In this document: in pieces, positions 12,279 to 35,800 of the stretch
Numbering within the stretch: the first letter of the stretch is position 1
How the letters are laid out: every line of letters starts with the position of its first letter
Source of the DNA: Desulfosporosinus nitroreducens
Lineage (GTDB): Bacteria > Bacillota > Desulfitobacteriia > Desulfitobacteriales > Desulfitobacteriaceae
DNA: 64,000 bases
Assembly: GCF_023897015.1 (NCBI RefSeq)
Contig: NZ_JAMHFY010000014.1
Location: 62,001 to 126,000 of the forward strand
Reading direction: 5' to 3'
The notes under the pieces: model-generated
Seen by the model: only the letters and a program-made list of their open reading frames with translations
Databases searched by the model: none
What the model was told of the DNA's origin: nothing
Program-made: the position numbers and the translations under genes

Positions 12279-12454
12279 GTCAGAACCCGGGCTATTTCAA
12301 AATGGCCCGCGCAGGCCAATTTGTCACCCTCATGAGTCTGGCCACATATTCTGTGAAAAAGGAACAGAAGAGACATACAGGTACAGTGTCTGCAAGAAGG
12401 GCTAATTCGTGCGAAGACAGTGTCTTCGTGTGTGTGTGGGCGCTGCCAAGTTTT
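12279..12454. repeat. Dispersed repeat, copy 1 (GGCC-palindrome element)
   Basis: Starts GGTCAGAACCC and holds AATGGCCCGCGCAGGCCAATTTG. It matches 52560-52805 closely, but lacks the second hairpin because of a deletion between the two GGCCAATTTG strings. It continues into the small gene on the minus strand at 12455. Confidence 0.7.
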
Positions 12455-12673
12455 CTAATTGTCCGTGATAATCTCAGAGAGGCGGGTTTTAATTCCTAAC
12501 TCCAAGAAATAGAAGCCCATGCCTCGGGAAAGCTCGGCGTTAGCCCCCCTTGCCTGCAGATAAGCGGTTCCCAGTTTCCATAAATCTTGGGAGCTATGTT
12601 TGGACAAAAACGAATAACGCTTACGGACATATTCATAGCCAATCTCAAAATCACTGAGGTCTTGTCTGGACAT
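12455..12673 (-). CDS. Small protein paired with an Xre regulator
   Basis: Encodes 72 residues, MSRQDLSDFEIGYEYVRKRY through RGMGFYFLELGIKTRLSEII. It starts inside the last 23 bases of the Xre gene at 12651-12884, in another frame, so the two are coupled. No known family. The C-terminal 45 residues recur in a truncated copy at 52806-53009. The pairing with a small DNA-binding protein is the usual layout of toxin-antitoxin or phage-type control modules, but nothing in this sequence proves that. Confidence 0.6.
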   Translation of the reverse strand: MSRQDLSDFEIGYEYVRKRYSFLSKHSSQDLWKLGTAYLQARGANAELSRGMGFYFLELGIKTRLSEIITDN

Positions 12674-12884
12674 CGTTTTCCTCCCGCTGTTTAGAGGATT
12701 GTTCTCCGATCAGTTCGGCAATACTAACACCGAGAGCGGCAGAAAGTTTCTTCAGGATAGGATAGGTAGGCTGTTTTCTGTTGGCTTCCAGTTCAGAAAT
12801 ATAGGTTTGGGAAACACTCGAGCGTCTGGAAAGCTCAGCCTGAGACAATTTTTGTTTGGTTCGAAAATAGTTTAGATTTTGCAT
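12651..12884 (-). CDS. Xre-family transcriptional regulator
   Basis: Encodes 77 residues. The helix-turn-helix fills residues 6-60: RTKQKLSQAELSRRSSVSQT, YISELEANRKQPTYPILKKL, LGVSIAELIGE. The tail is polar. It is divergent from another Xre gene at 13005 and the DNA between holds three CTTT(A/T)GCG boxes, the likely operators. It overlaps its downstream partner. Confidence 0.88.
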   Translation of the reverse strand: MQNLNYFRTKQKLSQAELSRRSSVSQTYISELEANRKQPTYPILKKLSAALGVSIAELIGEQSSKQREENDVQTRPQ

Positions 12885-12910
12885 ACACCATACTTCCTTT
12901 TATCAACAAT

Positions 12911-12995
12911 TATAATTGCTTTTGCGATATACTTCAACCGCTTTAGCGTGCTATGGAGTGGCTTTTTTATTTGTTATAATTGCTTTAGCGATAGG
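12911..12995. promoter_or_regulatory. Three repeated operator-like boxes between divergent Xre genes
   Basis: Box 1 TATAATTGCTTTTGCGATAT at 12911-12930; box 2 CGCTTTAGCG at 12939-12948, with CGCT and AGCG half-sites in dyad symmetry; box 3 TTATAATTGCTTTAGCGATA from about 12974. The shared core GCTTT(A/T)GCG in a divergent region between two HTH genes suggests mutual or self repression. Confidence 0.6.
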
Positions 12996-13004
12996 AGTGA
13001 AATA

Positions 13005-13316
13005 ATGGGAATCGATTATGGCTCTAAATTCTTGGAATTAAGAAAAAAGAATAAGTTAAGTCAAAAAGATTTGGCCAATATTGCGGAGATTGGGCAAACT
13101 ACAATTAGCGACATAGAAGCTGGGAAAAAATCACCAAACGCTATCACGATTGAAAAGATATGTTTGGCTCTTAATATTACGCTTACAGAATTTTTTGCCG
13201 AGGAACGCCCGCAGCTTGAGCCGGAACTTCGCCGTCTGGTGGATACAGCTCGAAAGCTTTCGCCGGAACAAATAGAATATCTTCAGAAGTTGTTGGAATC
13301 GATGAGTAAGGATTAA
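13005..13316 (+). CDS. Xre-family transcriptional regulator
   Basis: Encodes 103 residues from ATG 13005 (MGIDYGSKFLELRKKNKLSQ), with GGAG 8 bp upstream; a longer frame back to 12879 lacks a ribosome site. The helix-turn-helix covers 8-62 (SQKDLANIAEIGQTTISDIE). The C-terminus PELRRLVDTARKLSPEQIEY with LQKLLESMSKD is a dimer-type helix shared almost word for word with the next regulator at 13691, so the two are paralogues. Confidence 0.9.
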   Translation: MGIDYGSKFLELRKKNKLSQKDLANIAEIGQTTISDIEAGKKSPNAITIEKICLALNITLTEFFAEERPQLEPELRRLVDTARKLSPEQIEYLQKLLESMSKD

Positions 13317-13473
13317 CTTTTTGGCTTTAGGGTACCAAGAAGCTACCATAGTGTCTTGCCCAAAAAATGTTAAACAGGGGAACCGGTAAAAGATGAAATG
13401 AAGGATTACATAACTGAAGAGCAACTTTTATTTTAACTGATATTTAACCTATAAGAATAATCCAGCTTATTTC

Positions 13474-13558: not shown

Positions 13559-13690
13559 TTTATATGAGGTTTGTCACCCTTATAGAATTATATTCAGCAT
13601 GTCGATGCTAAAAATGAATAAAACTCATGATACTTACATTTGTGCGATTCAGATATAATTGAACATGAATTATATTCAGGATGTGATGAA

Positions 13691-13996
13691 ATGAATTACG
13701 GACAGCGAATAAAGTTCTTTCGTAATACAGTTGGAATTTCAGCCAATGCTTTAGCGAAGAAAGTTGGACTGGACCCGACTACAATTTATAAAATTGAAGC
13801 CAACGATTCTAAACCCTCTCTTGGTTCCCTCGAAAGCATATGCGCTGCTCTCAGCATTAGTCTTGCGGAATTCTTCACTGAAGAAGAACAGGTCTTAGGA
13901 CCGGAAATCCAACGACTACTGGGTACCGCGAAAAAGCTTTCACCGGAACAAATCGATTATCTTCAGAAGTTACTGGAATCGCTTAGTAAAGATTGA
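13691..13996 (+). CDS. Xre-family transcriptional regulator
   Basis: Encodes 101 residues from ATG 13691 (MNYGQRIKFFRNTVGISANA). The helix-turn-helix reads LAKKVGLDPTTIYKIEANDS, and the tail (PEIQRLLGTAKKLSPEQIDY, then LQKLLESLSKD) matches the regulator at 13005. The last codons and the terminator are copied again at 17098-17215 without the rest of the gene. Confidence 0.88.
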   Translation: MNYGQRIKFFRNTVGISANALAKKVGLDPTTIYKIEANDSKPSLGSLESICAALSISLAEFFTEEEQVLGPEIQRLLGTAKKLSPEQIDYLQKLLESLSKD

Positions 13997-14056
13997 TTTT
14001 TGGGCTTTTGGGTACCTATAGGGTACCCTTTATAGTTTAATCTATCGAGAGTAGTC
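13941..14056 (+). repeat. 116-bp direct repeat, left copy (end of Xre gene plus terminator)
   Basis: Matches 17098-17215 with only a few substitutions and two single-base indels. It includes the last 18 codons of the Xre gene and the GGGTACC hairpin. The two copies flank a 3.0-kb segment with the FMN-reductase, HxlR and nitroreductase genes. Confidence 0.85.
14010..14032 (+). terminator. Terminator of the Xre gene
   Basis: GGGTACC at 14010-14016 pairs with GGTACCC at 14022-14028 over a TATAG loop, followed by TTTATAG. The same structure recurs in the right copy near 17169-17192. Confidence 0.75.
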
Positions 14057-17046: not shown

Positions 17047-17097
17047 AGCAGCCCATATTCCGGTGAAAGTCTTCAAAATTGACCTCAACATGCAAAA

Positions 17098-17215
17098 CAC
17101 CAGAACAAATCGACTATCTTCAGAAGTTACTGGAATCGCTTAGTAAAGATTGATTTTTGGGCTTTTAGGGTACCTATAGGGTACCCTTTTATAGTTTAAT
17201 CTATCGAGAGTAGTC
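17098..17215 (+). repeat. 116-bp direct repeat, right copy
   Basis: Repeats the end of the Xre gene at 13941-14056 plus the GGGTACC terminator. It has no start codon here and is not a gene. The 3.0 kb between copies may have arrived or moved by recombination between such repeats. Confidence 0.85.
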
Positions 17216-17383
17216 ATGCTTGTTCGAAAATGGACGCCCCTTGCTATCGTTTTTAAAATATTTGGTGATTGGTGGAAGGAAAAGCAGGAAGTTCGGCGAA
17301 AAAGAAAATATACGTCAAATGATGTCCAAAAGACTGTTCGCTTGAAAATTGACTTAAAGCCAAAGACTTTGGGGGTTAAATAA
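17216..17383 (+). CDS. Short ORF, probable fragment
   Basis: Encodes 55 residues, MLVRKWTPLAIVFKIFGDWW to KIDLKPKTLGVK. The ATG is created at the repeat junction (AGTAGTC|ATG) and no ribosome site is seen. The basic, Trp-rich sequence looks like the tail of a longer protein. It ends with TAA directly before the ATG of the next gene (TAAATG), so it might have been its operon partner. Confidence 0.35.
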   Translation: MLVRKWTPLAIVFKIFGDWWKEKQEVRRKRKYTSNDVQKTVRLKIDLKPKTLGVK

Positions 17384-18469
17384 ATGCATTATATCGGAAT
17401 CGACTTAGCATGGACCTATGCCAATGAATCGGGAATTTGTGTGATCGCTGACAATGGGGAAATCGTCTATTGTGAGTCCCAGGTTTTCAGCGACGAAATG
17501 ATTGCGGACATCGTTGCAGAACATGCTCAAGAAGGAGCCATCGTAGGGATTGATGCTCCCCTAATCGTGAATAACGAAACAGGTTCCAGATACTGTGACG
17601 GAGCTATTATGAGAGAGAAAATTCATGGTAAGAATCTGTCCGTTTTCACCTGCAGTAAAAGCTTTATGCTCAACCACTTCGGAGTAGTTCGAGGAGAAGA
17701 GGTCGTCAAAGCCATTCGAAAGCGGATGCCGGCTTTTGCCCTCACCGGTGACCTAACCAATAAAAAGCACGTGATTATCGAAACCTTTCCCACGGGAATA
17801 ACTTTAGGCCTTTTTCCCGATGCTTTTCCTGTTAAATATAAAATCAAACATAAGATCAAATTTGAAACAACTAAAACGGAGATGGGCAGGATGGTTAACC
17901 TTTTAAAAAGGTTAAGTGATTTCAATCCCCCCGTCCATAATATAGAAGATTTCTTCAATCATTTATCGAGCATTCAAGCTATGTCTAAGAAGGGGTTTAA
18001 GAACCTTGAGGACAAGCTGGATGCTTTTTTATGTGCTTACGCCGCTTATTGGCTGGCCAAGCATCAGGGGAAGGTTTTCGGTGATGATCAGGATGGGTTC
18101 ATTACTATTCCAATAATAGACGAGAATGAGGTCCGTGACGGCAAATCAGAGAGGATACGAGTCTACAATAAACTGATTCGCGATAAGATACCCCAGATCA
18201 TCGAAGACAACGGCAAGAAAGCCATTATTGAAAAGGTTTCAGGCCCAGAATACCTGAATTTATTAAACGTCAAGTTAGGGGAAGAGCTTCAGGAGTACCT
18301 GGACAGCCAAAAGGTTGAAGAACTGGCGGATTTAGTTGAAGTCGTTTACGCCATCTTGAATTATGAAGGGGTCTCTCGGCAGGAATTCGAGGATATCAGA
18401 AAGCAAAAGGTCGAGGAGAGAGGCGCTTTCCGGGATAAGCCCCTGCTGAAAGAAGTAAGCGACAGTTGA
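17384..18469 (+). CDS. DUF429 (RNase H-like) and MazG-type pyrophosphohydrolase fusion
   Basis: Encodes 361 residues in two parts. Residues 1-250 are a DUF429 domain: MHYIGIDLAWTYANESGICV, IVGIDAPLIV, VIIETFPTGI, LEDKLDAFLCAYAAYWLAKH and GFITIPI, matching the conserved acidic residues of this predicted RNase H-fold nuclease. Residues 260-361 (YNKLIRDKIPQIIEDNGKKA, KLGEELQEYL, EELADLVEVVYAIL) form an all-alpha NTP pyrophosphohydrolase of the phosphoribosyl-ATP-pyrophosphatase-like MazG group with its E-x2-E...E-x2-D ladder. The two parts are common as separate proteins. The helicase gene starts 14 bp later, so they form an operon. Fusion of a nuclease-like and a nucleotide-hydrolysing domain beside a nuclease-helicase suggests nucleic-acid defence. 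Confidence 0.85.
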   Translation: MHYIGIDLAWTYANESGICVIADNGEIVYCESQVFSDEMIADIVAEHAQEGAIVGIDAPLIVNNETGSRYCDGAIMREKIHGKNLSVFTCSKSFMLNHFGVVRGEEVVKAIRKRMPAFALTGDLTNKKHVIIETFPTGITLGLFPDAFPVKYKIKHKIKFETTKTEMGRMVNLLKRLSDFNPPVHNIEDFFNHLSSIQAMSKKGFKNLEDKLDAFLCAYAAYWLAKHQGKVFGDDQDGFITIPIIDENEVRDGKSERIRVYNKLIRDKIPQIIEDNGKKAIIEKVSGPEYLNLLNVKLGEELQEYLDSQKVEELADLVEVVYAILNYEGVSRQEFEDIRKQKVEERGAFRDKPLLKEVSDS

Positions 18470-18483
18470 GGGGTTGAAGGGAA

Positions 18484-20751
18484 TTGACAGAAAAGATCAA
18501 GCAGAAGGGCAGCCTGGGCAGTGTCGCCAAAGACCTCTTCGTCGAGCTGTTTTGTGATACCTTTGGTCCGGATCAAGCGGAGTATCTGTTTCTTCAGTAT
18601 CCGGTCACCGATATTTATGGTAATAGACGCTCCATAGATTTTGCTCTGGAAAGTGAAGACTTAAAAATTGCCATTGAGATTGATGGTGAAACCTATCATA
18701 ACCCCAATAAGGTTTCTTCTAATAAATATTATGATGACCTTACCAAGCAAAACAGCCTGATCTATCATAACTGGAAGATTTACCGCTGGGTATACAATCA
18801 ATTGAAGCACCAACCTGAAAAGGTCAAGGACGAACTGCGGATTTTTGTCGGGGAAATACCCTCCTTCAGAATGCTGGAGGATTATCTGCCTAAGCAGAAG
18901 GGCAAGGTGATTGAACTGCGGGAACATCAACAAGCTGCTTTGGACAGCCTAGAGACCATGCGTGATCAAGGGGAGAGTATCGCTCTGCTTTATCATGCTA
19001 CCGGAACCGGAAAAACTGTGACCGCAGTCAGTGACGCCAAACGTCTGGGGAAACGAACCCTGTTTTTGGCTCATACCAAAGAACTAATAACCCAGGCTAA
19101 AGGTACCTTTGAAGAACTTTGGGATCAGGCGGAGACAGGTCTCTATTTTGCCGAAGAAAAAGCTAAAGACGCTTATGTTGTTTGCAGCAGCATTCAGAGT
19201 GCTGCCAGAAATCTGGAAGGGTTTAAACCGGAAGATTTCGGTTATATCATTGTCGATGAATGCCATCATGGAACGGCAGATACATATAGGAAGGTTTTGA
19301 GTTATTTCAAACCTGAATTCACTCTGGGTCTCACGGCTACCCCGGACAGAGCCGATGGCGAGAGCATCCTGGAGGACTTTAAGAACGTGGCCCATAAGCT
19401 GGATTTGCAGCAAGCCGTGGAATTAGGGGAACTTGTTCCCATCAGGTGTATCCGGGTCAAGACCAATGTGGATCTTTCCACGGTGAGAATCAATGGCATT
19501 AAATATTACGCTCAGGACTTAGAAAGTAAACTCTTTGTGCCGGAGAGAAATAAGCTTATAGCAGAAACCTATCTGAATTATGTTAGGAATAAGAAAACCG
19601 TGGTGTTCTGTGCTTCTGTAAACCACGCTCAGGAGATTTCAGCTTTATTTAAGGAAAAGGGAATTAATTGTGAGGCTGTTTCCGGTTCAATGAAGTCAGC
19701 AGAAAGGTCGAGGATTTTAGATCGTTATGAAAATGAGGATATCCAAGTCTTATGTGCCTGTGACCTTTTAAACGAGGGCTGGGACAGCCCGAAAACAGAA
19801 GTTTTGTTCATGGCTAGGCCGACGCTGTCCAAGACACTTTATGTTCAGCAGCTGGGACGGGGGATGCGCAAGTGCGCGGGTAAGGACTACCTGATGGTTT
19901 TTGATTTTATTGATAATGCGGGCTTGTTTAATATGCCCTACTCCCTACACAGGATGTTTAACCTGAAGGAATATAGGGCAGGAGAGTACGTTGTTGCTTC
20001 CCAGAAACAGTTTGAACTGGACAGAGATTTAATCGCCAGAGGAGAAAAGCCGTCTGTTTCTCTGGATTTCCCGGTGAATGCCGCGGATTACGAGCTGATT
20101 GATCTATTTAACTGGCAGGATGAAGTGAAAGGGATGATATCTCAGCTGGAGTTCGTAAGGATGGTTGATGTGCAAACAGAAACCATCGAACGGTACCTGC
20201 GTGAAGGAAAGATAACCCCTGATTTAGAGGTGCCTTTCGGGGATAAAAGGAACTTTAAATATTTTAAGGAAGCAACCGTGGAGAGCTATGCTAAACAGTA
20301 CGGCTGGGAGCTGATCAACCCTGCCAATATGAAAGATAGGTTTATGGACATGGTCAGGACGATGGATATGAGCTTTTCCTATAAGCCGATACTGCTCAAG
20401 GCCATGCTTGAGCATGTTGACGAAAAGGGAAGAGTTAAGGTCGAGGATATGGTTAATTACTACATGGACTTTTATAGGGCTAGAAAAGATAGCGGGCTGG
20501 TGGTTGAGAAGAAATCTAGCCTGTATTGCAAAGCCGGATATACGAGAAAGGATGTTGAGAGAAATATCTTTAGCAATCCTTTTAAGCGGTTTGAGGATAT
20601 GCGGTTTATGAGCCGGTGCCGGGATATTGAGTATGTGGAGTTTAATCGACATGTTTGGAAGAGGATGACTCAGGCGGATAAGGGCTGGATTGTTGGTTGG
20701 TGTGATGAGAAGTTGGAGGAGTATTATAGGAAGAGAATAATAAAGGGTTAA
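18484..20751 (+). CDS. SF2 DEAD/DEAH helicase with N-terminal endonuclease-like domain
   Basis: Encodes 755 residues from a TTG at 18484 (AAGGG site upstream). Residues 1-120 resemble a restriction-type PD-(D/E)XK fold of the DUF559/VSR kind: RSIDFALESEDLKIAIEIDG gives the D and E-x-D positions, then TYHNPNK. Residues 140-520 are an SF2 helicase: Walker A LYHATGTGKT, DECHH box at about 260, GLTATPDRADGE (motif III), motif V/VI region EGWDSPKTEVLFMARPTLSK and LGRGMRKC. The last 230 residues are unknown. It acts on DNA or RNA and is translated with the DUF429-MazG protein. A decayed helicase of another type occurs later in the window; the two are not close relatives. Confidence 0.9.
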   Translation: MTEKIKQKGSLGSVAKDLFVELFCDTFGPDQAEYLFLQYPVTDIYGNRRSIDFALESEDLKIAIEIDGETYHNPNKVSSNKYYDDLTKQNSLIYHNWKIYRWVYNQLKHQPEKVKDELRIFVGEIPSFRMLEDYLPKQKGKVIELREHQQAALDSLETMRDQGESIALLYHATGTGKTVTAVSDAKRLGKRTLFLAHTKELITQAKGTFEELWDQAETGLYFAEEKAKDAYVVCSSIQSAARNLEGFKPEDFGYIIVDECHHGTADTYRKVLSYFKPEFTLGLTATPDRADGESILEDFKNVAHKLDLQQAVELGELVPIRCIRVKTNVDLSTVRINGIKYYAQDLESKLFVPERNKLIAETYLNYVRNKKTVVFCASVNHAQEISALFKEKGINCEAVSGSMKSAERSRILDRYENEDIQVLCACDLLNEGWDSPKTEVLFMARPTLSKTLYVQQLGRGMRKCAGKDYLMVFDFIDNAGLFNMPYSLHRMFNLKEYRAGEYVVASQKQFELDRDLIARGEKPSVSLDFPVNAADYELIDLFNWQDEVKGMISQLEFVRMVDVQTETIERYLREGKITPDLEVPFGDKRNFKYFKEATVESYAKQYGWELINPANMKDRFMDMVRTMDMSFSYKPILLKAMLEHVDEKGRVKVEDMVNYYMDFYRARKDSGLVVEKKSSLYCKAGYTRKDVERNIFSNPFKRFEDMRFMSRCRDIEYVEFNRHVWKRMTQADKGWIVGWCDEKLEEYYRKRIIKG

Positions 20752-21266: not shown

Positions 21267-22433
21267 ATGGCGGAGAAAATAATGACTGTCTTGGCGAAGG
21301 AAACCGGAGGCAAAAGCTATAAGGCTCACAAATACGGACTTGATCACGCTGAACGCCCATTCATAGAATATGGAGATGATTCAATCATATGGAAAAAGAC
21401 CGCTGAGACTACTCCTCACCGCAAATATGTTTCTCTTGAAAATTTAGGAAAAAAACTTGCGGCAAGGAATGAGCAGTTGCTTACTTATTTTCTTGATGGT
21501 TCTCGTAGGGTGTTTAAAGTTGATGACATTGCCTATAAAGTGTCTAATGGCAGAAGTGTAATTTATCCAGTAATCGCTGGACAAATTGGAGTGGGCTGCT
21601 GTCGTAGAGTTAATAAGGCAGTCATTCCAGAGAAATTCAAACGAGAGATAGTACTGGCATTGCCAGATATTGCTGACGCTGACGGAATACCGGGTTTCTT
21701 TAATGCAACAGCCAAAAAGCTAAATGAATGTGCAGAGTTAAGACGGGTTGGTATAGAGTTTTCTACGATATTGCCATATAAAACAGCAAAGAATACAGAC
21801 AAGAAGTTTGAAGATAGGGGAACTGCGTGTATCCAAGACCGGATGATAGAACGTGAAAAAGAACTGGTCGCGGAGCTTGTTCGTGAGGGAAAGTTGAACC
21901 AAGATAACTATTTGGTTAAAGATGGTTCGCTTGAATATAAGCCAACCAAAGAGGACAAGGCTGACAAAAGGAAATACCAGATGTTCAAAAATAATTACAG
22001 TTGGGTATTAGGGGCCTCAAAGAATTTCAACCCAGAAGTATGTTTGGATATTAATGGGAAACCAAACCCGGGATTTATTGCTGACTTACCACTTTATCAC
22101 CGAACGCCTGTAGCCTGTTTTGTTAGCGATTTTTTAGGTGATGATATCCAGTTTGCGGTGTGGTACATCCGACTTAGGGATAAGAAACGGACCCGAACTC
22201 CTTTTGATGGAATATTGAAAGTCGAGAAAATTCTCGTGACACAAGAAGATGTTGACAATGGCATAGATAGTGACCTTGTAGATGTGCTTAGTGCGTACTT
22301 GATAAACGAACGAAATCCTGTTTGCTATGGTTCAGATTTGCGTTGGGCGAATCACATCTATCCTGTATATCTCACTGAGTCTTTTGTGAAGTCAAAATAC
22401 CTGAGTACAGAAAGTTTTCTGCATCTATTTTGA
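21267..22433 (+). CDS. NurA-like nuclease, first gene of a four-gene cassette
   Basis: Encodes 388 residues; ATG 21267 with AGGAGGATAAC. NurA marks are visible: YFLDGSRRVFKVDD (the DGS acidic site, residues about 72-86), a second acidic site LVKDGSLEYKP near 219-229, a Lys in WVLGASKNFNPE, FAVWYIRLRDKKR, and HIYPVYLTESFVKSKY near the end. NurA is a DNA end-trimming nuclease that works with the HerA translocase; the next gene encodes a HerA-like protein, which strongly supports the call. The long middle region (IYPVIAGQIGVGCCRRVN and the K/E-rich 190-250) departs from archaeal NurA. There are no close paralogues in the window. Confidence 0.75.
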   Translation: MAEKIMTVLAKETGGKSYKAHKYGLDHAERPFIEYGDDSIIWKKTAETTPHRKYVSLENLGKKLAARNEQLLTYFLDGSRRVFKVDDIAYKVSNGRSVIYPVIAGQIGVGCCRRVNKAVIPEKFKREIVLALPDIADADGIPGFFNATAKKLNECAELRRVGIEFSTILPYKTAKNTDKKFEDRGTACIQDRMIEREKELVAELVREGKLNQDNYLVKDGSLEYKPTKEDKADKRKYQMFKNNYSWVLGASKNFNPEVCLDINGKPNPGFIADLPLYHRTPVACFVSDFLGDDIQFAVWYIRLRDKKRTRTPFDGILKVEKILVTQEDVDNGIDSDLVDVLSAYLINERNPVCYGSDLRWANHIYPVYLTESFVKSKYLSTESFLHLF

Positions 22434-22448
22434 GGAGGATTAAAATTA

Positions 22449-24179
22449 ATGAATAGTAAAAATAAACTGATCGGGCGTGTACTTGCCACCGAAAAAACAC
22501 CGACCACAATGGATAAGTTCAACTTCTGGACAAACTCAGATTTGAAGCTTCATGCGTTCGATATAGTTAAAGTTAAACATATTGACAACTCGTTTTCGTT
22601 TGGTATGATTGAGAATATCTCTCATATAACCGACGCCCAGAGCTTTTTAACCAATTTCATCTCCAGCGACTTCGGAGATGTTAATGTCGAAGAGCCAACT
22701 TTGCGCGTAGGGATGAATTATGCTGAAGCAGCTATATCTTTTAACGATAAAAATCTTTATACTCCTGTTCATAATAACGCCCCAGTATATCTGGCTACAG
22801 CTGAAGAAATAACTATGGCATTGGGGCTTGACAAAGTTCAGAACCCTCTTGTTTGCGGTTCGCTGAAAATGTATGAGGGAACCACTGACGAGATTACCTT
22901 GCCTGTGAATCTCAATTCGAAATTCATACTGGGTCCCGAGGGCGCACATCTAAATATCTCAGGTATTTCAGGACTTGCATCTAAGACGTCATACGCTATG
23001 TTTCTGATGAAAGCTATTCAAGACCATTACATCATAAAAGCCGATATCGATACCAATGATAGTGTTGCTTTTGTTATTTTTAATGTCAAAGGCAAAGATC
23101 TTATGGCAATTGATAGACCCAATGACTTTATTGCCGACAAACCAGGTGAAAAAGAAAGAGTTTTTGCTGACTATGAAACCCTTAAACTTTCCACGGAGCC
23201 GTTCAAGAACGTCAAATACTATATTCCGTTTTCAAGCAATACATCAGCAAAAAGAAGCACCTATCTTGGCGCAGATGATGTAAAGGCATATATGGAATAT
23301 AAACAACTTAAAAAATTCAAATATTCGTATGAAGATGATAAGGAAAGCCTTGAAATGTTGTTTGCAGATGTTGATGACCCACAACAAACAATGGAGTCGA
23401 TAATTAGTAAAATTATTGATGATTTGGACCCTGATTTTGGTGGTGGGCGCGTTGTAACATGGCAAGACTTCAGAGATAAGGTAAATGAGCTTTCGCAAAG
23501 GTCGCAACCTTCAACAAAAGGTCAGCAAAGGGTTTCTAATGAAATATCTGTGCTTAGTTGGAGAAAGTTTAAACGTATTATCAACAAAGCAACTAAAAAT
23601 GATGATATGTTTGCAAATCGTCCAGATCAAAGCAAGCATGAATGCCGTTTGGCGGACGCTTTAAAACACATAAGTAAAAACGAGGTTTGTGTTATTGATG
23701 TTGCTAAACTACCTGAGGACAAACAAGCATTTGTTTTTGGAGACGCGGTGCGTACAATTTACAATTTGAAATTGGGTGAATATGACGGCGATGATGGCGT
23801 TAATCCACCATCGAGAATCATTGTATTCATTGACGAACTCAATAAATACGCCTCCAAAGAGACTCCAAAGACATCACCAATTTTGAGGGAAATTTTGGAT
23901 GTCACCGAACGTGGTCGCTCGCTCGGCGTTGTGCTTTTTGGTGCTGAACAGTTCCGTTCTAATATACATCAGCGAGTCACCGGCAATTGTTCTACTCACG
24001 CATATGGTCGAACAAACTCTATTGAAACTGCCACCAAGGATTACGGGAGTTTACCGAGTACGTATAAAAACATGTTGACTAGATTAGAACAGGGAGATTA
24101 TCTAGTTCAAAATCCAATTTTCCGCTCCTTGCTGAAAATAAAATTTCCAAAACCGATTTATAAGCAATTCAAGGATTAA
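22449..24179 (+). CDS. HerA-like ATPase/translocase
   Basis: Encodes 576 residues and starts 15 bp after the nuclease gene, with GAGGAGG. Residues 1-140 form an N-terminal HAS-barrel-like part (IGRVLATEKTPTTMDKFNFW). The ATPase domain starts near 155: KFILGPEGAHLNISGISGLA then SKTSYAMFLMKAI is a variant Walker A with SKT in place of GKT, and ASRIIVFIDELNKYA is Walker B. LFGAEQFRSNIHQRVTGNCS carries the conserved sensor/arginine region. A 60-residue insertion around 285-345 (YKQLKKFKYSYEDDKESLEM) is helical. HerA forms a hexameric ring that moves DNA and feeds NurA. The altered Walker A is notable; hydrolysis may still work because the Lys and Thr remain. Confidence 0.85.
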   Translation: MNSKNKLIGRVLATEKTPTTMDKFNFWTNSDLKLHAFDIVKVKHIDNSFSFGMIENISHITDAQSFLTNFISSDFGDVNVEEPTLRVGMNYAEAAISFNDKNLYTPVHNNAPVYLATAEEITMALGLDKVQNPLVCGSLKMYEGTTDEITLPVNLNSKFILGPEGAHLNISGISGLASKTSYAMFLMKAIQDHYIIKADIDTNDSVAFVIFNVKGKDLMAIDRPNDFIADKPGEKERVFADYETLKLSTEPFKNVKYYIPFSSNTSAKRSTYLGADDVKAYMEYKQLKKFKYSYEDDKESLEMLFADVDDPQQTMESIISKIIDDLDPDFGGGRVVTWQDFRDKVNELSQRSQPSTKGQQRVSNEISVLSWRKFKRIINKATKNDDMFANRPDQSKHECRLADALKHISKNEVCVIDVAKLPEDKQAFVFGDAVRTIYNLKLGEYDGDDGVNPPSRIIVFIDELNKYASKETPKTSPILREILDVTERGRSLGVVLFGAEQFRSNIHQRVTGNCSTHAYGRTNSIETATKDYGSLPSTYKNMLTRLEQGDYLVQNPIFRSLLKIKFPKPIYKQFKD

Positions 24180-24208
24180 CAAACAATTAAAGTGAGAGGA
24201 GTGAATTA

Positions 24209-25798
24209 ATGTACCAATATGTTTTCGGTGCAAATATATTAGAGAATCTTACGACAGGAATGTACCAAGATTCAAGAGTCATTTATCGCGAGTATATACA
24301 GAATGCATGTGATCAAATTGACAAGGCAGAACGCGACGGACTCTTGCTTCGAAGTGAAGGACGAATTCATATCTGGCTTGATCCCGATAGGCGTATAATC
24401 ACTATCGAAGATAATGCAACTGGAATTCCGGCCTCTGATTTTCAGAAAACTTTAGGTAACATTGCTGATTCTGATAAGAAAATAGGTGAAGATAAAGGTT
24501 TTCGTGGTATTGGTAGACTATGTGGGCTTGCTTATTGTAGAGAATTGGTTTTTACATCGACTGCAAAAGGCGAAACTATTATCTCCACTATGCGCTGCAA
24601 TGCTCGAAAAATGCGTGAATTGATTGTTGCAAATAGCAAAGGTGAAAAACATACTGCAAGTGATGTTCTTCATTCTATAAACGAATTTACGACTGAAGAC
24701 AAGGCGAATCCCAATGATCATTGGTTTAAGGTTGAACTTGTTGGTATTAATGATGCAAATACTGACTTGCTTGATTTTGCACAAATAAAGGAATACCTGT
24801 CTTTTGTGGCTCCTGTTCCATATATAAACACTTTTATATTCCGAAAAGAGATTCATAAACATGCTGAAGAAATAAAGTATAATATTGATGAATATGATAT
24901 CACGCTGAATGGTGAAGCAGTGCTCAAGAAGTATAAGACGAACTTTAAAACCTCCAAAGGCGATGATGAAATTTTTTCTATCGAATTTAAAGATATCAGA
25001 GATTTAGATGGGAATCTTCTCGCATGGATTTGGTGGGGTGTATCGCGTTTCAAGGCGTCTATTAATAAGGATTGCCAAATGCGAGGTCTTCGCTTGCGTA
25101 AAGAGAATATTCAGATAGGTGACGACGACGCACTGCAAAAACTATTCAAAGAAGACCGGGGGCATCATTATTTTATTGGCGAAGTTTTTGCTGTGGCAAA
25201 AGACCTAATACCTAACTCACAGAGAGATTACTTTAATGAAAATGAAACACGTAATCGATTTGAACGAGAACTTAAACTCTATTTTAATGATGAACTCAAA
25301 AGTATATATTATGGCGGTTCTGCCATAAATAGTGCGTTTGATAAGATAGATAACTTCGCAAAAAAAGAAGCAGAGTTTAAGGAAAAAGAAGCGAATGGCG
25401 TGTTCGTTGATACCGCACACAGAGAAGCAGAACTCGATGAAATTAAGAAAGCAAAATCCAAAGCCGAAGAAGCAAAAAAAGAAATTGAAAAGAAAAAGCA
25501 AAAGGCTGATGAAAAAGATAATAACGTCATGGGAAGGTTAATTGAACGTATTGAAACGGAACGCACTAAAAAACCACATATAGTAATAAGTGCAAAACCG
25601 CCCGAACCAGATACTACAAAGGACACCAAAATTCCGTGGAGAACGGATAAGCTATCAAATTACAGTAAAAAAGAACGGAAACTTATTTCAAAAATATTCG
25701 GCATTATTGTTACATCTACGAACAAAGAGATAGCTGAAACTATAATTCAAAAGATCGAGGGCGAACTGCAAAATGAATCGAAGAGTGTTGCTCATTGA
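24209..25798 (+). CDS. Hsp90-like GHKL ATPase
   Basis: Encodes 529 residues, 29 bp after the HerA gene, AGAGGAG site. The N-terminal ATP fold of Hsp90/Gyrase B/MutL type is clear: YREYIQNACDQIDKAE (N-box with E and N), ITIEDNATGIPASDF (G1 box), and GEDKGFRGIGRLCGLAYC (G2 box). A transducer-like domain follows to about 370, then a long coiled coil (395-440, EAELDEIKKAKSKAEEAKKE) and a Lys-rich tail. The length and layout resemble prokaryotic MORC/Hsp90-like proteins found in conflict systems. Such ATPases act as clamps on DNA or protein. It overlaps the radical SAM gene by 26 bp, so the two are coupled. Confidence 0.82.
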   Translation: MYQYVFGANILENLTTGMYQDSRVIYREYIQNACDQIDKAERDGLLLRSEGRIHIWLDPDRRIITIEDNATGIPASDFQKTLGNIADSDKKIGEDKGFRGIGRLCGLAYCRELVFTSTAKGETIISTMRCNARKMRELIVANSKGEKHTASDVLHSINEFTTEDKANPNDHWFKVELVGINDANTDLLDFAQIKEYLSFVAPVPYINTFIFRKEIHKHAEEIKYNIDEYDITLNGEAVLKKYKTNFKTSKGDDEIFSIEFKDIRDLDGNLLAWIWWGVSRFKASINKDCQMRGLRLRKENIQIGDDDALQKLFKEDRGHHYFIGEVFAVAKDLIPNSQRDYFNENETRNRFERELKLYFNDELKSIYYGGSAINSAFDKIDNFAKKEAEFKEKEANGVFVDTAHREAELDEIKKAKSKAEEAKKEIEKKKQKADEKDNNVMGRLIERIETERTKKPHIVISAKPPEPDTTKDTKIPWRTDKLSNYSKKERKLISKIFGIIVTSTNKEIAETIIQKIEGELQNESKSVAH

Positions 25799-27632
25799 GC
25801 CAGATTATAAAAATAAATATCCACCTATGGGGTTAATGAAATTAGCCACATACTATCGTCGCCTTGAAGATGATGTGCGATTCTTTAAGGGAAATCTTAA
25901 AGAGTTTGCTGCAAGGCTCCTTTGTGAGGAATTTTTTGATGAAGTTGGAGATGCTTCTCTTGGCAAACACTTTCCTAAACTGATTGAACACATTAAGACG
26001 GGAAAATATGCTCCATTAGATGCTATCCCCGACTTTCGGAATAGCGAGTTAGAGAGAAAAATTAAAGTATATCGCCTTCGGTACAAGGCTGAGGACTTTC
26101 CGAAATTTGACATAGTAGGCATTACTACGCTGTTTACTTTTTACTGGAGTAAAACGGTTGACACAATTAACTATGCAAAGAATTTTTGTAAGCACGACGG
26201 TAGAATGCTCGTGGGAGGTATTTCGTCAACCATTTTGCCAGATGAAATTATAAAAGAAACTGGAATTGACCCTCATAAAGGGTTGTTAAACGCACCCGGA
26301 ATTTTAGATAACGACAATAAAGATATCATTGATGAATTGCCGTTAGATTACTCTATCCTTGATGAGATAGATTATAAGTATCCCGCAAATAATGCGTACT
26401 TTGGTTACATGACGAGGGGCTGTGTAAATAAGTGTGAATTTTGTGCTGTGCCAAGACTTGAACCGGATTACAAGGATTATATAGCTCTAAAACAACAAAT
26501 CAAGGAGACAGAAGAACGCTTCGGTGCACAAAAAGACCTTCTTTTAATGGACAATAACGTATTTGCATCAAAATGTTTTGATGGAATTATTGATGAAATA
26601 AAAGAATGTGGATTTGCGAAAGATGCAACGTATATGCCCCCAAGTGAGTATAGCCTCGCCATAGATAATCTGAAAGCTAATTATAATATTAGAGCGTATA
26701 GAAAAAAGATGATTGGAATCTATGACCGTCTTTCAAAAAAAATGAGCGAAGAAGACGCTGGCGACTTCTATCGCAAACGGGAAAAGCTAAATTTACTGTA
26801 CGCCGAAGTGGCAACAAAAGACAATATCCTTGCTTTTGACGACACAGTTCGCCCACTGTATGATAAAGCTTTTAGAAACATGAGACGTGCACGCTATATT
26901 GATTTTAACCAGGGTGTCGACGCAAGATTGGTCACTGACGCAAAAATGGCAAAACTATCAGAAATCAATATTCGCCCGCTTCGTATCGCATTTGACCATT
27001 ATTCTATGAATAAGGTTTATATAAAGGCGATAAAATCAGCAGCTAAACACGGTATTACCGACCTTTCAAACTATCTACTTTATAACTATCAAGACAAGCC
27101 GGAAGAACTATACTATCGAATGAGGATTAACATAGATCTTTGTGAAGAACTTGGCGTCACAATTTACTCATTTCCAATGAAGTACCATCCGATTGATGAC
27201 CCAACTTATTTCCGCAATCGTGATTACATTGGAGATAAATGGAACCGTAAGTTTATTCGTGCAATACAAGCTGTACTTAATGCTACAAAAGGTAAAATTG
27301 GCCGTGGCAAAGCATTTTTTGAGGAAGCGTTTGGAAAGGATATTGATGAATATAATAAAATTCTTTGGATGCCAGAAGCATTTATTATTTACCGCCGAAA
27401 GTACGATGAAGAACTTCGGACTCGACTTGCGGAAAAATACCAAAGTCATTATGATGATGAAAGTAATCTTGTGAACGAATGGTGGGATAAATTCAACGCT
27501 CTCGACGAGAAACAATTGCAAGTTGCCAAAGATATAATCGCGAGGAACCGATTTGCATACGAGGATATTGAACATTGTCGGGATAAGTTTGTGCGTGAAG
27601 TATTGGAGTATTACCGGATAAAGAGAGATTGA
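25773..27632 (+). CDS. Radical SAM protein with B12-binding-like N-terminal domain
   Basis: Encodes 619 residues; start ATG 25773 lies inside the previous gene. RVLLIEPDYKNKYPPMGLMK and the later DIVGITTLFTFYWSKTVDTI resemble the Rossmann-type cobalamin-binding domain of B12 radical SAM enzymes, though the usual DxHxxG cobalamin ligand was not seen. GYMTRGCVNKCEFCAVPRLE gives the CxxxCxxC cluster at about residues 215-222. LLLMDNNVFASKCFDGIIDE and YIDFNQGVDARLVTDAKMAK match later TIM-barrel positions. It should make an adenosyl radical; the substrate is unknown. An about 80-residue insertion (300-385) interrupts the barrel. No other radical SAM gene occurs in the window. Confidence 0.85.
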   Translation: MNRRVLLIEPDYKNKYPPMGLMKLATYYRRLEDDVRFFKGNLKEFAARLLCEEFFDEVGDASLGKHFPKLIEHIKTGKYAPLDAIPDFRNSELERKIKVYRLRYKAEDFPKFDIVGITTLFTFYWSKTVDTINYAKNFCKHDGRMLVGGISSTILPDEIIKETGIDPHKGLLNAPGILDNDNKDIIDELPLDYSILDEIDYKYPANNAYFGYMTRGCVNKCEFCAVPRLEPDYKDYIALKQQIKETEERFGAQKDLLLMDNNVFASKCFDGIIDEIKECGFAKDATYMPPSEYSLAIDNLKANYNIRAYRKKMIGIYDRLSKKMSEEDAGDFYRKREKLNLLYAEVATKDNILAFDDTVRPLYDKAFRNMRRARYIDFNQGVDARLVTDAKMAKLSEINIRPLRIAFDHYSMNKVYIKAIKSAAKHGITDLSNYLLYNYQDKPEELYYRMRINIDLCEELGVTIYSFPMKYHPIDDPTYFRNRDYIGDKWNRKFIRAIQAVLNATKGKIGRGKAFFEEAFGKDIDEYNKILWMPEAFIIYRRKYDEELRTRLAEKYQSHYDDESNLVNEWWDKFNALDEKQLQVAKDIIARNRFAYEDIEHCRDKFVREVLEYYRIKRD

Positions 27633-27875: not shown

Positions 27876-28183
27876 GGCAGTAAATGGTGACTGGATTAAT
27901 GTAAAGGAGAGGTATTATCCCCTGGGACAATGCCTCTCTCTCGCTTTTCCGTAGCGGTTTAGGGTATAGATCAACACGTTTCTTAACCCTCTCCCTTAAG
28001 CTGTGTGGGAATTAGCTGATTTCAGAGTCACTATGGTTATTATGATTTAATGACAAAAGAAGTTGAATGGAATTAAAGTGCTCAGCATGCTAAAATGGAT
28101 GTTACAATATCAGTTCTTAGAACGAAATCCTAATCTAGTGGACATAGTCTTCTAAAATGATGATATATGAGGAGGATGCGTAC
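27876..28183. other. Intergenic region before the dGTPase gene
   Basis: Holds the hairpin at about 27908-27941 and otherwise AT-rich DNA. No certain promoter; TAAAAT near 28091 and TTGAAT near 28063 are too far apart for a standard pair. Confidence 0.4.
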
Positions 28184-29617
28184 ATGTCTGAAATTCTCAT
28201 GAAATGTATTGATTTGGAGAAGAGCAAAAATGGGCTAATTAAAAAATGGGGGTATAAGCATCCGGAGAAGTTATATGAAGAAGAGACTTACAGAACAAAT
28301 TTTCGAAGACAAAGAGATAGAATTTTGTATACCGGTGGTTTCAGACGATTGCAAGATAAAACGCAAGTAATATCTGCAATGAAATCCGGAGACCATAGAA
28401 CCAGGTTAACCCATACTCTAGAAGTTGAGCAAATAGCAATAAGTCTATCAGATGCGCTAGGATTAAACTCAGACTTAGTATCTGCTATAGCTTGCGGACA
28501 TGATGTCGGGCATACTCCCTTTGGACATGCAGTTGAAAGAGCCCTAAATAAAAAACTTAACAAGCAAGGTGGCTTTTCACATGCAATTCAGAGTGTAAAA
28601 TACTTAAACGAGAAAATGAGAAAAGACAAAACGCCGAAAAAAGTCCAAAAGCTACAAGATTTAATATTTGAAGGGATTCTCAAACATGACACTGATGTGT
28701 ACGTAGGAGATTATGATAATAGGCAATGGGACTGTTCACAATATAAACTGGATGAAGCGGGCACGTTGGAAATGCAGGTTGTTTATTGGGCGGATAAAAT
28801 TGCGTACCTCACACATGATTTTGAGGATTTTTATAACACTGAAATATACTTACATGCAAAAAAAAATTACCCTCAGCTTGAAGTAGAGTTAAAGACTATC
28901 TTGGCAGAGTTAACAAAAAACCCCAAAATTAAGAAGAATATAAAGCTTTTTGAGACAAGAAATTTGATACGAAATATTATTGCTCAGCTCATTGATCAAA
29001 GTAAAAAAAATATTAAGTCAAAAACTTTAAAACCCAATGGTATTAGAATAGAAACTACACGACTGATAAAAGAAGAAGAATTAAAGCAAGCAAAAAAAGA
29101 GAAAGAAGATTCTGCAGTTGAAGTGAATTATGTTGAATATTTAGAAGTTAACAAAATAAAAGAACTAGAAGCTCAATTAGAAGACATTAAAAAGCGTAAC
29201 GACAAAGACCAACAAGAATTAGTTGACAGCACAATTAAGACTGTTAAAAAAATAAAAAAGAATGCGTATATGGATTGTTTAATGATAAACTTTACCGATG
29301 AGTATAGAAAAAACTATAAGGAACTAAGAAAACTTCTAGATGATTATTATATTTTTAGTCCTGAAATAACGAGATCTGATGCAAAAGCAGAAAAAATAGC
29401 AAATTGTTTATTTGATGATTTTGTTGCGAACATCAGGTTGTTGCCATTAAATATTCGAAAACGTATAAAAGATAAAGATAACAATAACGATAACGAACCA
29501 GTTGGAGCCAACTCGAAAGAGAGAATTGTCGCGGATTATATTGCAAGTATGACTGATAGGTATGCAGAAGTTATTTACACAGATTTGAACGCAATCGGTG
29601 GAAACTACGACTATTAG
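28184..29617 (+). CDS. HD-domain dNTP triphosphohydrolase (dGTPase-like)
   Basis: Encodes 477 residues from ATG 28184 (MSEILMKCIDLEKSKNGLIK) with GAGGAGG; an ATG at 28157 lies before that site. The HD metal site is clear: RTRLTHTLEVEQIA (first His), IACGHDVGHTPFGHAVERAL (HD pair and second His), then YWADKIAYLTHDFEDF (last Asp). These enzymes split dGTP into deoxyguanosine and triphosphate. An unusual Lys/Glu-rich coiled coil of about 70 residues (KEEELKQAKKEKEDSAVEVN) is inserted near 295-365. dGTPases that drain nucleotide pools are known phage-defence effectors. The next gene begins 17 bp later, so the pair is one operon. Confidence 0.88.
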   Translation: MSEILMKCIDLEKSKNGLIKKWGYKHPEKLYEEETYRTNFRRQRDRILYTGGFRRLQDKTQVISAMKSGDHRTRLTHTLEVEQIAISLSDALGLNSDLVSAIACGHDVGHTPFGHAVERALNKKLNKQGGFSHAIQSVKYLNEKMRKDKTPKKVQKLQDLIFEGILKHDTDVYVGDYDNRQWDCSQYKLDEAGTLEMQVVYWADKIAYLTHDFEDFYNTEIYLHAKKNYPQLEVELKTILAELTKNPKIKKNIKLFETRNLIRNIIAQLIDQSKKNIKSKTLKPNGIRIETTRLIKEEELKQAKKEKEDSAVEVNYVEYLEVNKIKELEAQLEDIKKRNDKDQQELVDSTIKTVKKIKKNAYMDCLMINFTDEYRKNYKELRKLLDDYYIFSPEITRSDAKAEKIANCLFDDFVANIRLLPLNIRKRIKDKDNNNDNEPVGANSKERIVADYIASMTDRYAEVIYTDLNAIGGNYDY

Positions 29618-32818: not shown

Positions 32819-35800
32819 GTGAATCTAAATACAATCCTGTATTGGCACAAATTAGAGCATTTCTATCCATATATTTTAGAGGAACAACATAACGAGAATA
32901 TCAAAACTTATCATATCAGCAAAGCTGATGGATTTCCCGATTTCTCTGCGCTTGATGATATACCTGAAAATAAGGCCGTGCGTTATTATGAGGTTTATTT
33001 CGGTATTTTTAAAGTCGACAGTGCTTTAGAAATTATCACCGAACAATTAAATGCCCAGAAAGAATTCAGGGACGAGAGTGACGAAGTTAGCTGTTTCTGT
33101 AAATTCCGCCTTGCTTCTGATGGATCATTTGATAAATCTAATTTTAGAATTTCTTCATTTCCATGGGCAGTTCAAAGAGTGAATAATCAGGAGATAAATA
33201 TCGAGGGTTGGGATGAAGATTTCCATAGGTATGAAAAAAGACTATTTATGGAACTGTTTGAAGCTCAATCCATGATTACGTATCCTTTGCTTAACGAAAT
33301 CATAATTAAGATAAGTGAAGATATAGGTTGGAAAATTGAATTCGCTGAGTGTTGGATGCGCATTGATCGTGTCATTGGTGATAAAAAGCAAACAAAACAT
33401 GGTGATCCGTCTGTCCCAGTGAAGACTGATAAAGAAATCGAAGAAGAAAACGCGTCGGTCGATGAACTTGTTAAGGCCAATGATTTGCTGAACAGCTTCT
33501 TTGCCCGTGATTTGGAAAGAATTATTTCAGATGTAAAAACTAACAACTTTGGGGTTTCTTTAGATGCCTATGTTGAGCATAATGCAGTAGAGCGGATTAA
33601 TATTGAAACTAATAAAGAGGCCCTTTTTGAAATTTTTGATCCTAGTCATTTGCCATATGGAAAATGGCCGAATGGTTATCCAGCGAGAAGTATGCAGCAG
33701 GTTGCAGTTAATATTTCAATGGATAGACAGAAACTAACCCAAAAAATATTTTCGGTTAATGGGCCTCCCGGAACGGGTAAGACGTTCCTTTTGAAAGATA
33801 TTATAGCAGCTAATCTGGTGGAAAGAGCATTACTGCTTTCAGAGTTTGAAAGACCGGATGATGCTTTCACAAATGAGATAGGCACAATCACCTATAAAGG
33901 ATTTGACAGTACTTTAAAGGATATAGACAATCGTCTCAAAGAATACGGTATATTAGTAGCCTCCAATAATAATGCAGCAGTAAAGAATATTACTATAGAA
34001 CTACCTAAGAAGTCATCGCTTAAATCGGAATATAAAGATCAATATACCTATTTTGATGATCTATCTAATCGGATTTTAGATGACGAGACATGGGGAATAT
34101 GCGCAGCTGCTCTGGGAAACAGAAAAAATTGTGCCGAATTCATGGACGAGTTCTGGCCGATTAAACCAGAGGAAAAAGAAAAATTTAAATTTAATAAACA
34201 TTTGTTGGATCTACATACTGGTAATGGTGAGAAGAAGAGAACCCCTGCTGATTGTGAGAAGTATTGGAAAGAGGCTAAAAGTAAATTTATTGAAGCCCTT
34301 CAGGCAGTACAAGCAGAATATGGAGAAATAAACGCCTGTTATCAAAAGCTGAAAGAAATAAATGGTTATTTAAAAGATCAACGTGATAAGGAAAATCAAT
34401 ATAGAGAGAACGCTAAGTTTTGTGATGAATTGGTGGCGCAAAAGGAAGAGTTGCAAGTGTTATGTGCAGAATTAGATGACGATTTTGAGAGATGCACGTC
34501 TCAGATGCAGGAGATCAGAAATATTCTGACCTTTTTCAGATTAAGATGCTTACTTCAACCTAAAAATGAAATGATTCAGCAATATAATATCATTGAAAAA
34601 AGGCGGCAAAATGCACTTAAACAAAAATTAGCAGAAGAAGATAAAATTGCTGCGTTAAATAAATCGATGATAAAGGTAAATAAGATAAAGGAACAACTTG
34701 AGAATGATCGATTGACATTAGTGCAGCAGATATCCGATTGTCAAAATTTCGTTGAGCCAATACGCAAGCGATACCAAGGATTATTACCGGATGACAGCTT
34801 TTTGTCAGATTTAGTGGGTAAAAATTCGGAAGAGGAACGTAAGGCAGCACAGAATACAGCACCGTGGAATGCGGATAAACTGACTGAATTACGTGAGAAG
34901 CTCTTTTTGGAGGCCATGAATCTACATAAAGCATTTGTGGAAAATTCACCGCAAATGAGAGTACAACTAGATACCTTTAATAAAATGATACGTGGAATGC
35001 TGACAAAGGCAGAGATGCAGAAATTTTCAGGGATACTATTCCAGAGCTTTATGCTTGTGGTGCCAGTTATCTCTACTACGTTTGCATCGGTTGGCAGCTT
35101 CTTAAAAAATATAGGGAAAGAAGAGTTCGGTCTTCTACTGATTGATGAAGCAGGGCAGGCATTTCCGCAATCGGCAGCAGGAGCAATGTGGAGGGCTAAA
35201 AAAGTTATCGCAGTCGGTGATCCGTTGCAGATTGAACCGGTAGTTACGATTCACGACACTACCATGGAATGTTTAAAACAATATTTTAAACAAACGGGTT
35301 TTATTGCATGTAAAGAAACGAGTGTTCAAAGTCTTGCAGATAAGGCGAATGTATATGTAGGTTCCCGGTCCATCGGAGAAAAAGATTTCTTTATAGGGTC
35401 CCCATTACTTGTTCACGGAAGATGTCAGCGCAAGATCTTTAATATTGCCAATAAGATAGCCTATAACGGAAAAATGATTTATGGGACAAAGGACATTGAA
35501 AAACCAGTCTGTAATTGGATCGATGTACATGGGCAGGCTGTTAACAAACATTTTGTACGCGCGCAGGCAGAGCAGGTTTTACCCATTGTGAAAGAAGCAT
35601 TTTTATCAGAGTGGCAAGCAAATGGAGTGGATAGTTGTCCATCACTTTTTATTATTAGCCCATTCCGAAGTGTGAAATCAGGGGTCATAAGATATTTGCG
35701 CGATAATGATTATTTATATCATGAATTATGTAAAGATAAAGATACAGTAAACAAAAAGGTAATCAATTCATGGATTTATTCTAATATTGGAACAATCCAT

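What the first reader, a model, noticed from the sequence alone, without database searches (positions are those of the whole stretch)
17384..20751. DUF429-MazG fusion in operon with a nuclease-helicase
Two domains that usually occur apart (an RNase H-like predicted nuclease and an NTP pyrophosphohydrolase) are fused and sit 14 bp before a helicase with a PD-(D/E)XK-like N-terminus. This suggests a two-gene defence unit that senses or destroys foreign nucleic acid and nucleotides. Domains are seen; role is inferred.
Basis: partly seen in the sequence, partly recalled or inferred. Interest (0 to 1): 0.65.

Follow-up and report, generated by a model that had tools for sequence, protein, structure and literature searches.

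The report
Nucleotide hydrolase paired with nuclease-helicase
In a sulphate-reducing bacterium, a gene that joins a predicted nuclease to a nucleotide-destroying enzyme sits directly before a nuclease-helicase gene at the edge of a cluster of anti-virus genes, and relatives suggest an undescribed defence unit whose constant parts are the nucleotide hydrolase and the helicase.

Summary
The 361-aa DUF429-MazG fusion and the 755-aa helicase with a PD-(D/E)XK-like N-terminus are both intact, 14 bp apart. This is no assembly error: 10 of 29 Desulfosporosinus genomes carry the full-length fusion, all with helicase sequence downstream (6 intact at 14 bp, 3 broken, 1 two genes away). All domains are under purifying selection (dN/dS 0.03-0.22) and keep their catalytic acids.

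The conserved partnership differs from the one proposed. DUF429 is a Desulfosporosinus addition. The recurrent pair is MazG plus helicase: of 44 helicase loci outside the genus, 23 have MazG on the same strand next to it (18 before, 5 after) and 6 have a HIT-family nucleotide hydrolase; none has both. A membrane-anchored nuclease is often a third gene.

Context favours defence: in Desulfosporosinus the pair heads islands with different defence cargo each time (RADAR, pAgo, Wadjet, Lamassu, IetS), and the helicase is patchy (11 of 398 genomes of the phylum). No activity is shown. Best reading: an undescribed accessory nuclease-helicase defence unit coupled to an exchangeable nucleotide hydrolase, a new variant of a known kind. 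Genome maintenance remains a serious rival.

The parts
17384..18469 (+). DUF429-MazG fusion gene, 361 aa
17384..18121 (+). DUF429 domain (aa 1-246), RNase H-like by family; D7, D57, E133 and D213 invariant in 13 aligned sequences
   Evidence: fold assignment from PMC3985635 (passages read)
18149..18466 (+). MazG / all-alpha NTP pyrophosphohydrolase domain (aa 256-361), ExxE...ExxD acids kept
18484..20751 (+). Nuclease-helicase, 755 aa, TTG start, 14 bp after the fusion
18520..18849 (+). PD-(D/E)XK-like N-terminal domain (aa 13-122), D52/E65/D67 invariant in 23 sequences
18889..19953 (+). SF2 helicase core (aa 136-490), close to RadD / XPB / SauUSI
19954..20748 (+). C-terminal part (aa 491-755), no Pfam match; conserved in the family
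17079..17153 (+). Remnant of an XRE-type HTH gene just upstream; relatives of the HTH gene lie close upstream of the fusion in other genomes (e.g. about 0.2 kb in L038)

Best explanation
It is an accessory nuclease-helicase defence unit whose constant parts are a RadD/XPB-like SF2 helicase with an N-terminal PD-(D/E)XK nuclease domain and a small nucleotide hydrolase, usually MazG and alternatively HIT. In Desulfosporosinus the MazG is carried on the C-terminus of a DUF429 (RNase H-like) protein, which adds a second nuclease, and the pair heads interchangeable defence islands. Proposed working: the helicase loads on foreign or replicating phage DNA, translocates and cuts it through its own nuclease domain; the MazG/HIT partner hydrolyses nucleotides at the same time, lowering the (d)NTP pool that phage replication needs or relieving nucleotide inhibition of the nuclease; DUF429 cleaves exposed DNA or RNA-DNA intermediates. 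Shown: gene order, recurrence, catalytic residues, purifying selection, defence-rich context. Inferred: foreign DNA as target, nucleotide hydrolysis as an arm of the response, and the role of DUF429.
For: Intact, selected and recurrent: 10 of 29 congeners carry the full fusion; dN/dS 0.03-0.22 for DUF429, MazG and the three helicase parts in 4 pairwise comparisons, one MazG value not computable. MazG-helicase pairing: in an unguided clustering of 841 neighbour ORFs at 62 helicase loci the largest neighbour family is MazG (35 loci, all 42 ORFs on the helicase's strand, median distance 22 bp); HIT and NERD follow with 8 loci each (HIT and NERD identity by Pfam on examples). Outside the genus 23 of 44 loci have MazG and 6 have HIT on the same strand, never both (chance of no overlap between 35 and 8 of 62 is 0.0007 before any correction for kinship). 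MazG is fused to a second, different N-terminal domain in another operon with this helicase (L166). Defence context in Desulfosporosinus: Lamassu LmuB-like, Dpd/DISARM-like, SduA + RADAR, SIR2-pAgo, JetC, IetS, MzaE + DNA methylase, Shango, and dGTPase and Mokosh-like genes in the window. In the phylum sample, 5 of 5 loci tested outside the class have strong PADLOC neighbours: type IV REase, Wadjet, Hhe/PDC-S37 + methylase, Orf5/HEC-06, BREX PglZ + Csm5. Patchy distribution, 11 of 398 genomes, this one included, and only 1 locus in a scan of 2.9 million viral contigs.
Against: No function has been tested. 13 of 44 non-genus loci show neither MazG nor HIT next to the helicase, 12 of them with enough upstream sequence, and 2 more have HIT only on the opposite strand (corrected for L118). 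In Heliobacteria the pair (helicase then MazG) lies among what look like housekeeping genes. The proteins scanned with PADLOC were chosen by eye as likely defence genes, so those hits show presence, not enrichment; the only control was 5 loci with standalone MazG, of which 1 has a Gabija-like neighbour and 1 a desulfurase scored as SspA/DndA. MazG and HIT enzymes are common housekeeping proteins (recalled).
Confidence: 0.5

Rival explanations
1. Genome maintenance rather than defence: a RadD/XPB-like helicase with a Vsr-like nuclease repairs damaged DNA, and MazG, HIT or NUDIX clean damaged nucleotides or adenylated intermediates.
For: Helicase core is closest to RadD, XPB and SauUSI. MazG is called a housecleaning enzyme in the literature (PMC10014863, title and abstract listing). 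Heliobacterial copies sit among apparent housekeeping genes. A NUDIX gene joins MazG and the helicase in L165.
Against: Patchy distribution (11 of 398), frequent decay and truncation within one genus, location at the edge of variable defence cargo.
Confidence: 0.25
2. Landing site: the fusion and helicase are conserved mainly as the flank of a recombination hotspot into which defence cargo is exchanged, without working together.
For: The DNA block w~17235-20733 has constant outer ends, and cargo starts at many points inside it (ends at w18163, 18270, 18517, 18721, 19146 and 20733; insertion inside the helicase in L035). Six genomes have the nitroreductase gene within about 3 kb upstream of the fusion, with different cargo in most.
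Against: Intact copies are under strong purifying selection, and the MazG-helicase pair recurs in distant Clostridia without this island.
Confidence: 0.15
3. Phage-derived replication helicase with a phage-type nucleotide enzyme.
For: The core matches PHROG 16 'DNA helicase' at E 1e-91 over aa 96-498, and 4232 phage records match the core.
Against: Only 1 of those phage records covers at least 80% of the protein (about 30% identical) and one contig of 2.9 million in IMG/VR encodes a relative found by the pattern scan.
Confidence: 0.05

Closest known systems
PADLOC PDC-S44 (DUF429 single-gene defence candidate)
   Same: aa 1-248 of the fusion match its model at E 2.8e-49
   Different: Profile lengths are 259 and 277; here a MazG domain is fused behind it and a helicase follows
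Gabija (GajA + GajB)
   Same: Works-like analogy: a nuclease-helicase unit tied to nucleotides; GajA is described as nucleotide-sensing (PMC8136825, title and abstract listing)
   Different: The fusion has no GajA match (E up to 0.1); the helicase here is SF2 of RadD/XPB type, not UvrD-like
Hachiman (HamA + HamB)
   Same: Two-gene helicase plus partner enzyme; HamB described as a sensor helicase (PMC12278908, abstract listing)
   Different: The partner has no HamA match and carries a nucleotide hydrolase domain
Type IV ATP-dependent restriction enzyme SauUSI
   Same: Helicase core, E 3.9e-50 over aa 146-479
   Different: Match ends at the core; N- and C-terminal parts differ
DefensePredictor MazG candidates
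   Same: MazG and other nucleotide-modifying domains were predicted as defensive, none validated (PMC13092281, passages read)
   Different: The main-text passages seen give no MazG-helicase or DUF429-MazG unit; its figure panels and supplement were not seen
DUF429 fusions with NUDIX or RelA/SpoT
   Same: DUF429 joined to a nucleotide-handling domain (PMC3985635, passages read)
   Different: MazG is not among the fusion partners named in those passages

Membership tests
DUF429 / PDC-S44 | Match to the family model | tested here: met
   PF04250 43.4 bits against 23; PDC-S44 E 2.8e-49
RNase H-like nuclease | Conserved acidic active-site residues | tested here: met
   D7, D57, E133, D213 invariant in 13 sequences down to about 30% identity (alignment)
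RNase H-like nuclease | RNase H-like fold | tested here: inconclusive
   Most of the DUF429 half has pLDDT under 50; best structural matches (Spt6, actin-like, Z about 8) are weak
MazG / all-alpha NTP pyrophosphohydrolase | ExxE and ExxD metal-binding acids | tested here: met
   E301xxE304 and E313xxD316 in 20 of 20 rows; motif recalled
MazG / all-alpha NTP pyrophosphohydrolase | All-alpha domain | tested here: met
   Helices 269-275, 287-308, 311-328, 332-346 at pLDDT above 90
MazG / all-alpha NTP pyrophosphohydrolase | Pfam curated cut-off | tested here: not met
   Only PRA-PH, 14.3 bits against 21.3; a standalone relative (L100) matches no Pfam family at E 0.01, so this subfamily seems to lie outside the Pfam models. 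The assignment rests on relatives annotated as NTP pyrophosphohydrolase, the acids and the helical model
SauUSI / type IV mREase | Full-length match | tested here: not met
   PADLOC mREase_IV aligns only aa 147-528 at best
RadD | NCBIfam equivalog cut-off | tested here: not met
   142.8 bits against 720
Hachiman | HamA-type partner | tested here: not met
   Fusion matches only PDC-S44 models in PADLOC at E up to 0.1
Gabija | GajA nuclease | tested here: not met
   Same scan
Anti-phage defence system | Protection against phage | not testable with these tools
   needs experiment

The most novel reading that the evidence does not exclude
A family of nuclease-helicase defence operons has a dedicated slot for a nucleotide hydrolase, filled by MazG, by HIT or (with MazG) by NUDIX, so that nucleotide-pool state and DNA cleavage are coupled; in Desulfosporosinus the slot is fused to an RNase H-like nuclease, giving a single protein that attacks both nucleic acid and nucleotides.
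Probability: 0.35. Interest if true: 0.7.

Novelty: new variant of a known kind. Interest (0 to 1): 0.5.

Why it matters
Nucleotide-modifying domains such as MazG have been predicted as defensive but not validated (PMC13092281, passages). This gives a concrete, compact operon, with natural swaps (MazG or HIT) and two different MazG fusions, in which to test whether nucleotide hydrolysis and DNA cleavage act together. It also flags a variable defence hotspot in a genus of sulphate reducers.

Tried and rejected
Assembly error or chance fusion: rejected, 10 genomes carry it in one frame. DUF429 as the conserved partner: rejected outside the genus. Mobile element with its own machinery: the block has constant outer ends, but no transposase or integrase was identified as part of it; not pursued further. 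Standalone MazG on plasmids: eight regions were opened; no helicase of this family lies beside the six standalone MazG copies; the Miltoncostaea plasmid has DUF429 with an annotated DEAD/DEAH helicase about 1.1 kb on, but no MazG hit; the phage record holds the helicase relative only. Structure of the DUF429 half: the model was too poor for a fold claim. Literature: searches listed no paper that I recognised as describing this operon; most subscription papers and bioRxiv are not in the library, and I read passages of three papers only (PMC13092281, PMC3985635, PMC12839542). mostly caught DUF4297. In the helicase tree (40 rows) the fusion label needs 4 changes and is not one clade; some labels are coarse: L092 counts as fused although its DUF429 is interrupted, L086 and L087 count as 'MazG upstream' although only fragments remain. 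One classification (L118, helicase C-terminus lost) was corrected by hand from 'none' to 'MazG downstream'.

Full report
What is there. The window lies in a 5.46-Mb genome of the genus Desulfosporosinus, as judged from named relatives of the pair. The fusion gene (17384-18469) and the helicase gene (18484-20751) are intact and 14 bp apart. The first 246 residues are DUF429; residues 256-361 are a MazG-type domain below the Pfam cut-off but about 40-48% identical to plasmid proteins annotated as NTP pyrophosphohydrolases, with all metal-binding acids kept and a confident helical model. The helicase has a PD-(D/E)XK-like N-terminus with invariant D52, E65 and D67, a core nearest to RadD, XPB and SauUSI and a conserved C-terminus without a Pfam match.

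Is it more than chance? In 82 genomes of the class, 10 of 29 genomes of the genus and 0 of 53 others carry the full-length fusion. All 10 have helicase sequence downstream: 6 intact at 14 bp (this genome, G011, G014, G024, G027, G035), 3 broken (G013 at 15 bp and interrupted, G016 at 14 bp and truncated, G018 with only the first codons left) and 1 intact but 1.8 kb away (G034). dN/dS between the window and four relatives is 0.03-0.22 in every part that could be computed, 19 of 20 comparisons.

The conserved pair. With the helicase as query, 32 of 82 class genomes, 59 loci among 84,980 species and 11 of 398 phylum genomes match. Of these, 62 entered the neighbour clustering and 60 had a helicase N-terminus. 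Clustering of all 841 neighbouring ORFs put MazG first (35 loci, always same strand), then NERD and HIT (8 loci each). By direct search, 16 Desulfosporosinus loci have MazG upstream in 14; 44 other loci have MazG upstream in 18, downstream in 5, HIT on the same strand in 6, HIT on the opposite strand in 2, and neither in 13, one of which is cut by the contig end (L118 corrected by hand). In two of the 18 (L165, L166) one gene stands between MazG and helicase. No locus has both MazG and HIT. MazG precedes the helicase in lineages as distant as Oscillospiraceae-like MAGs and Acetivibrio and follows it in Heliobacteria and a Tissierellia MAG. DUF429 is not part of the pair outside Desulfosporosinus; its own relatives are rare (4 of 398 genomes), and one of them is joined to a different C-terminal stretch.

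Further partners. In Desulfosporosinus and near relatives a membrane-anchored nuclease often completes the unit: NERD with a topoisomerase-type zinc ribbon after the helicase (L037, L040, L078, L080, L082, L083, and pieces in L036 and L038), or Mrr before it (L050, L129; also L073 from another genus), or DUF2726 with zinc ribbon (L042) (only L037, L050 and L042 were scanned with Pfam, the others by similarity; the membrane segment is read from the sequence). In another family a NUDIX gene stands with MazG (L165), and in the same genome MazG is fused to a different, unidentified N-terminal domain beside Wadjet genes (L166).

Surroundings. The fusion-helicase block (w~17235-20733 at the DNA level) occurs behind different upstream genes and is followed by different cargo; cargo replaces its 3' part from various points. 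The cargo scanned includes LmuB-like, Gabija/Dpd-like, SduA with RdrA/RdrB, PDC-S60, SIR2-pAgo, JetC, IetS, MzaE with a DrmMII-type methylase and PDC-M36A; Shango genes lie upstream of the fusion in L040; dGTPase and Mokosh-like genes lie in the window at 28157-29617 and 32819-36022 (30 proteins chosen by eye, mostly large cargo genes, of which 20 matched at E 1e-8). Genome G008 has the nitroreductase region without the module. In the phylum sample, five of the seven helicase loci outside the class were tested and all five have PADLOC neighbours; L171 resembles L170 and L168 was not tested. A further 10 proteins from eight non-genus clostridial loci were scanned, again chosen by eye: 7 of 10 matched at E 1e-6. 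A small control of five standalone-MazG loci gave one Gabija-like neighbour and one cysteine desulfurase scored as SspA/DndA.

How it most likely works. Shown: conserved operon, conserved active sites, selection, patchy distribution and defence-rich context. Inferred: the helicase engages invading DNA and cuts it with its N-terminal domain, while the hydrolase acts on nucleotides. Two versions fit: depletion of (d)NTPs for phage replication, or control of the nuclease by nucleotide level, as proposed for Gabija (PMC8136825, title and abstract listing). The interchange of MazG and HIT is the strongest hint that nucleotide hydrolysis itself, not MazG as such, is what the helicase needs. DUF429 then adds a second nuclease in one genus.

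Known or new. No PADLOC model covers the MazG half or the full helicase; the DUF429 part is a PADLOC candidate (PDC-S44). MazG has been predicted as defensive without validation (PMC13092281, passages), and DUF429 as an RNase H-like nuclease with NUDIX or RelA/SpoT fusions (PMC3985635, passages). The searches listed in Tried and rejected found no description of this operon. I file it as a new variant of the nuclease-helicase kind of defence system, with genome maintenance as the main rival.

Noticed in passing
window 21267-27632: Four-gene operon (388-aa unknown, HerA-like ATPase, HSP90/HATPase-type ATPase, radical SAM protein), about 96% identical DNA at the same place in another congener (L044); only weak PADLOC matches. 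May be an undescribed system.
   Followed up: partly
window 18030-18032; L044:6675-6772: Several congeners have a 98-138-base hairpin-rich insertion at the same codon (aa 216) of DUF429, and related pieces occur at 44 places in this genome: a dispersed MITE or REP-like repeat. The window's fusion copy lacks it.
   Followed up: partly
G000:C95 (L043:6136-6840): Second, broken DUF429 copy in the same genome, about 91% identical DNA, without the MazG half.
   Followed up: yes
window 12451-13321, 13580-14056, 17079-17215: Repeated XRE-type HTH genes, the first with a small opposite-strand gene upstream; a related remnant lies just before the fusion, and copies lie near the fusion in many congeners.
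   Followed up: partly
L166:8160-9173: MazG fused to an unrelated ~237-aa N-terminal domain of unknown kind, in an operon with the same helicase family and beside Wadjet genes.
   Followed up: partly
L170:259-7344, L171:784-7872: PglZ-BrxL-like-HIT-helicase gene order: the helicase with a HIT gene sits directly behind BREX genes (PglZ in L170; BrxL name recalled).
   Followed up: no
L034:49-9422: Three large genes directly behind the fusion (GajB/DRT-like 1080 aa, 950 aa without match, DpdE/DrmD-like 1096 aa), possibly one undescribed system.
   Followed up: no
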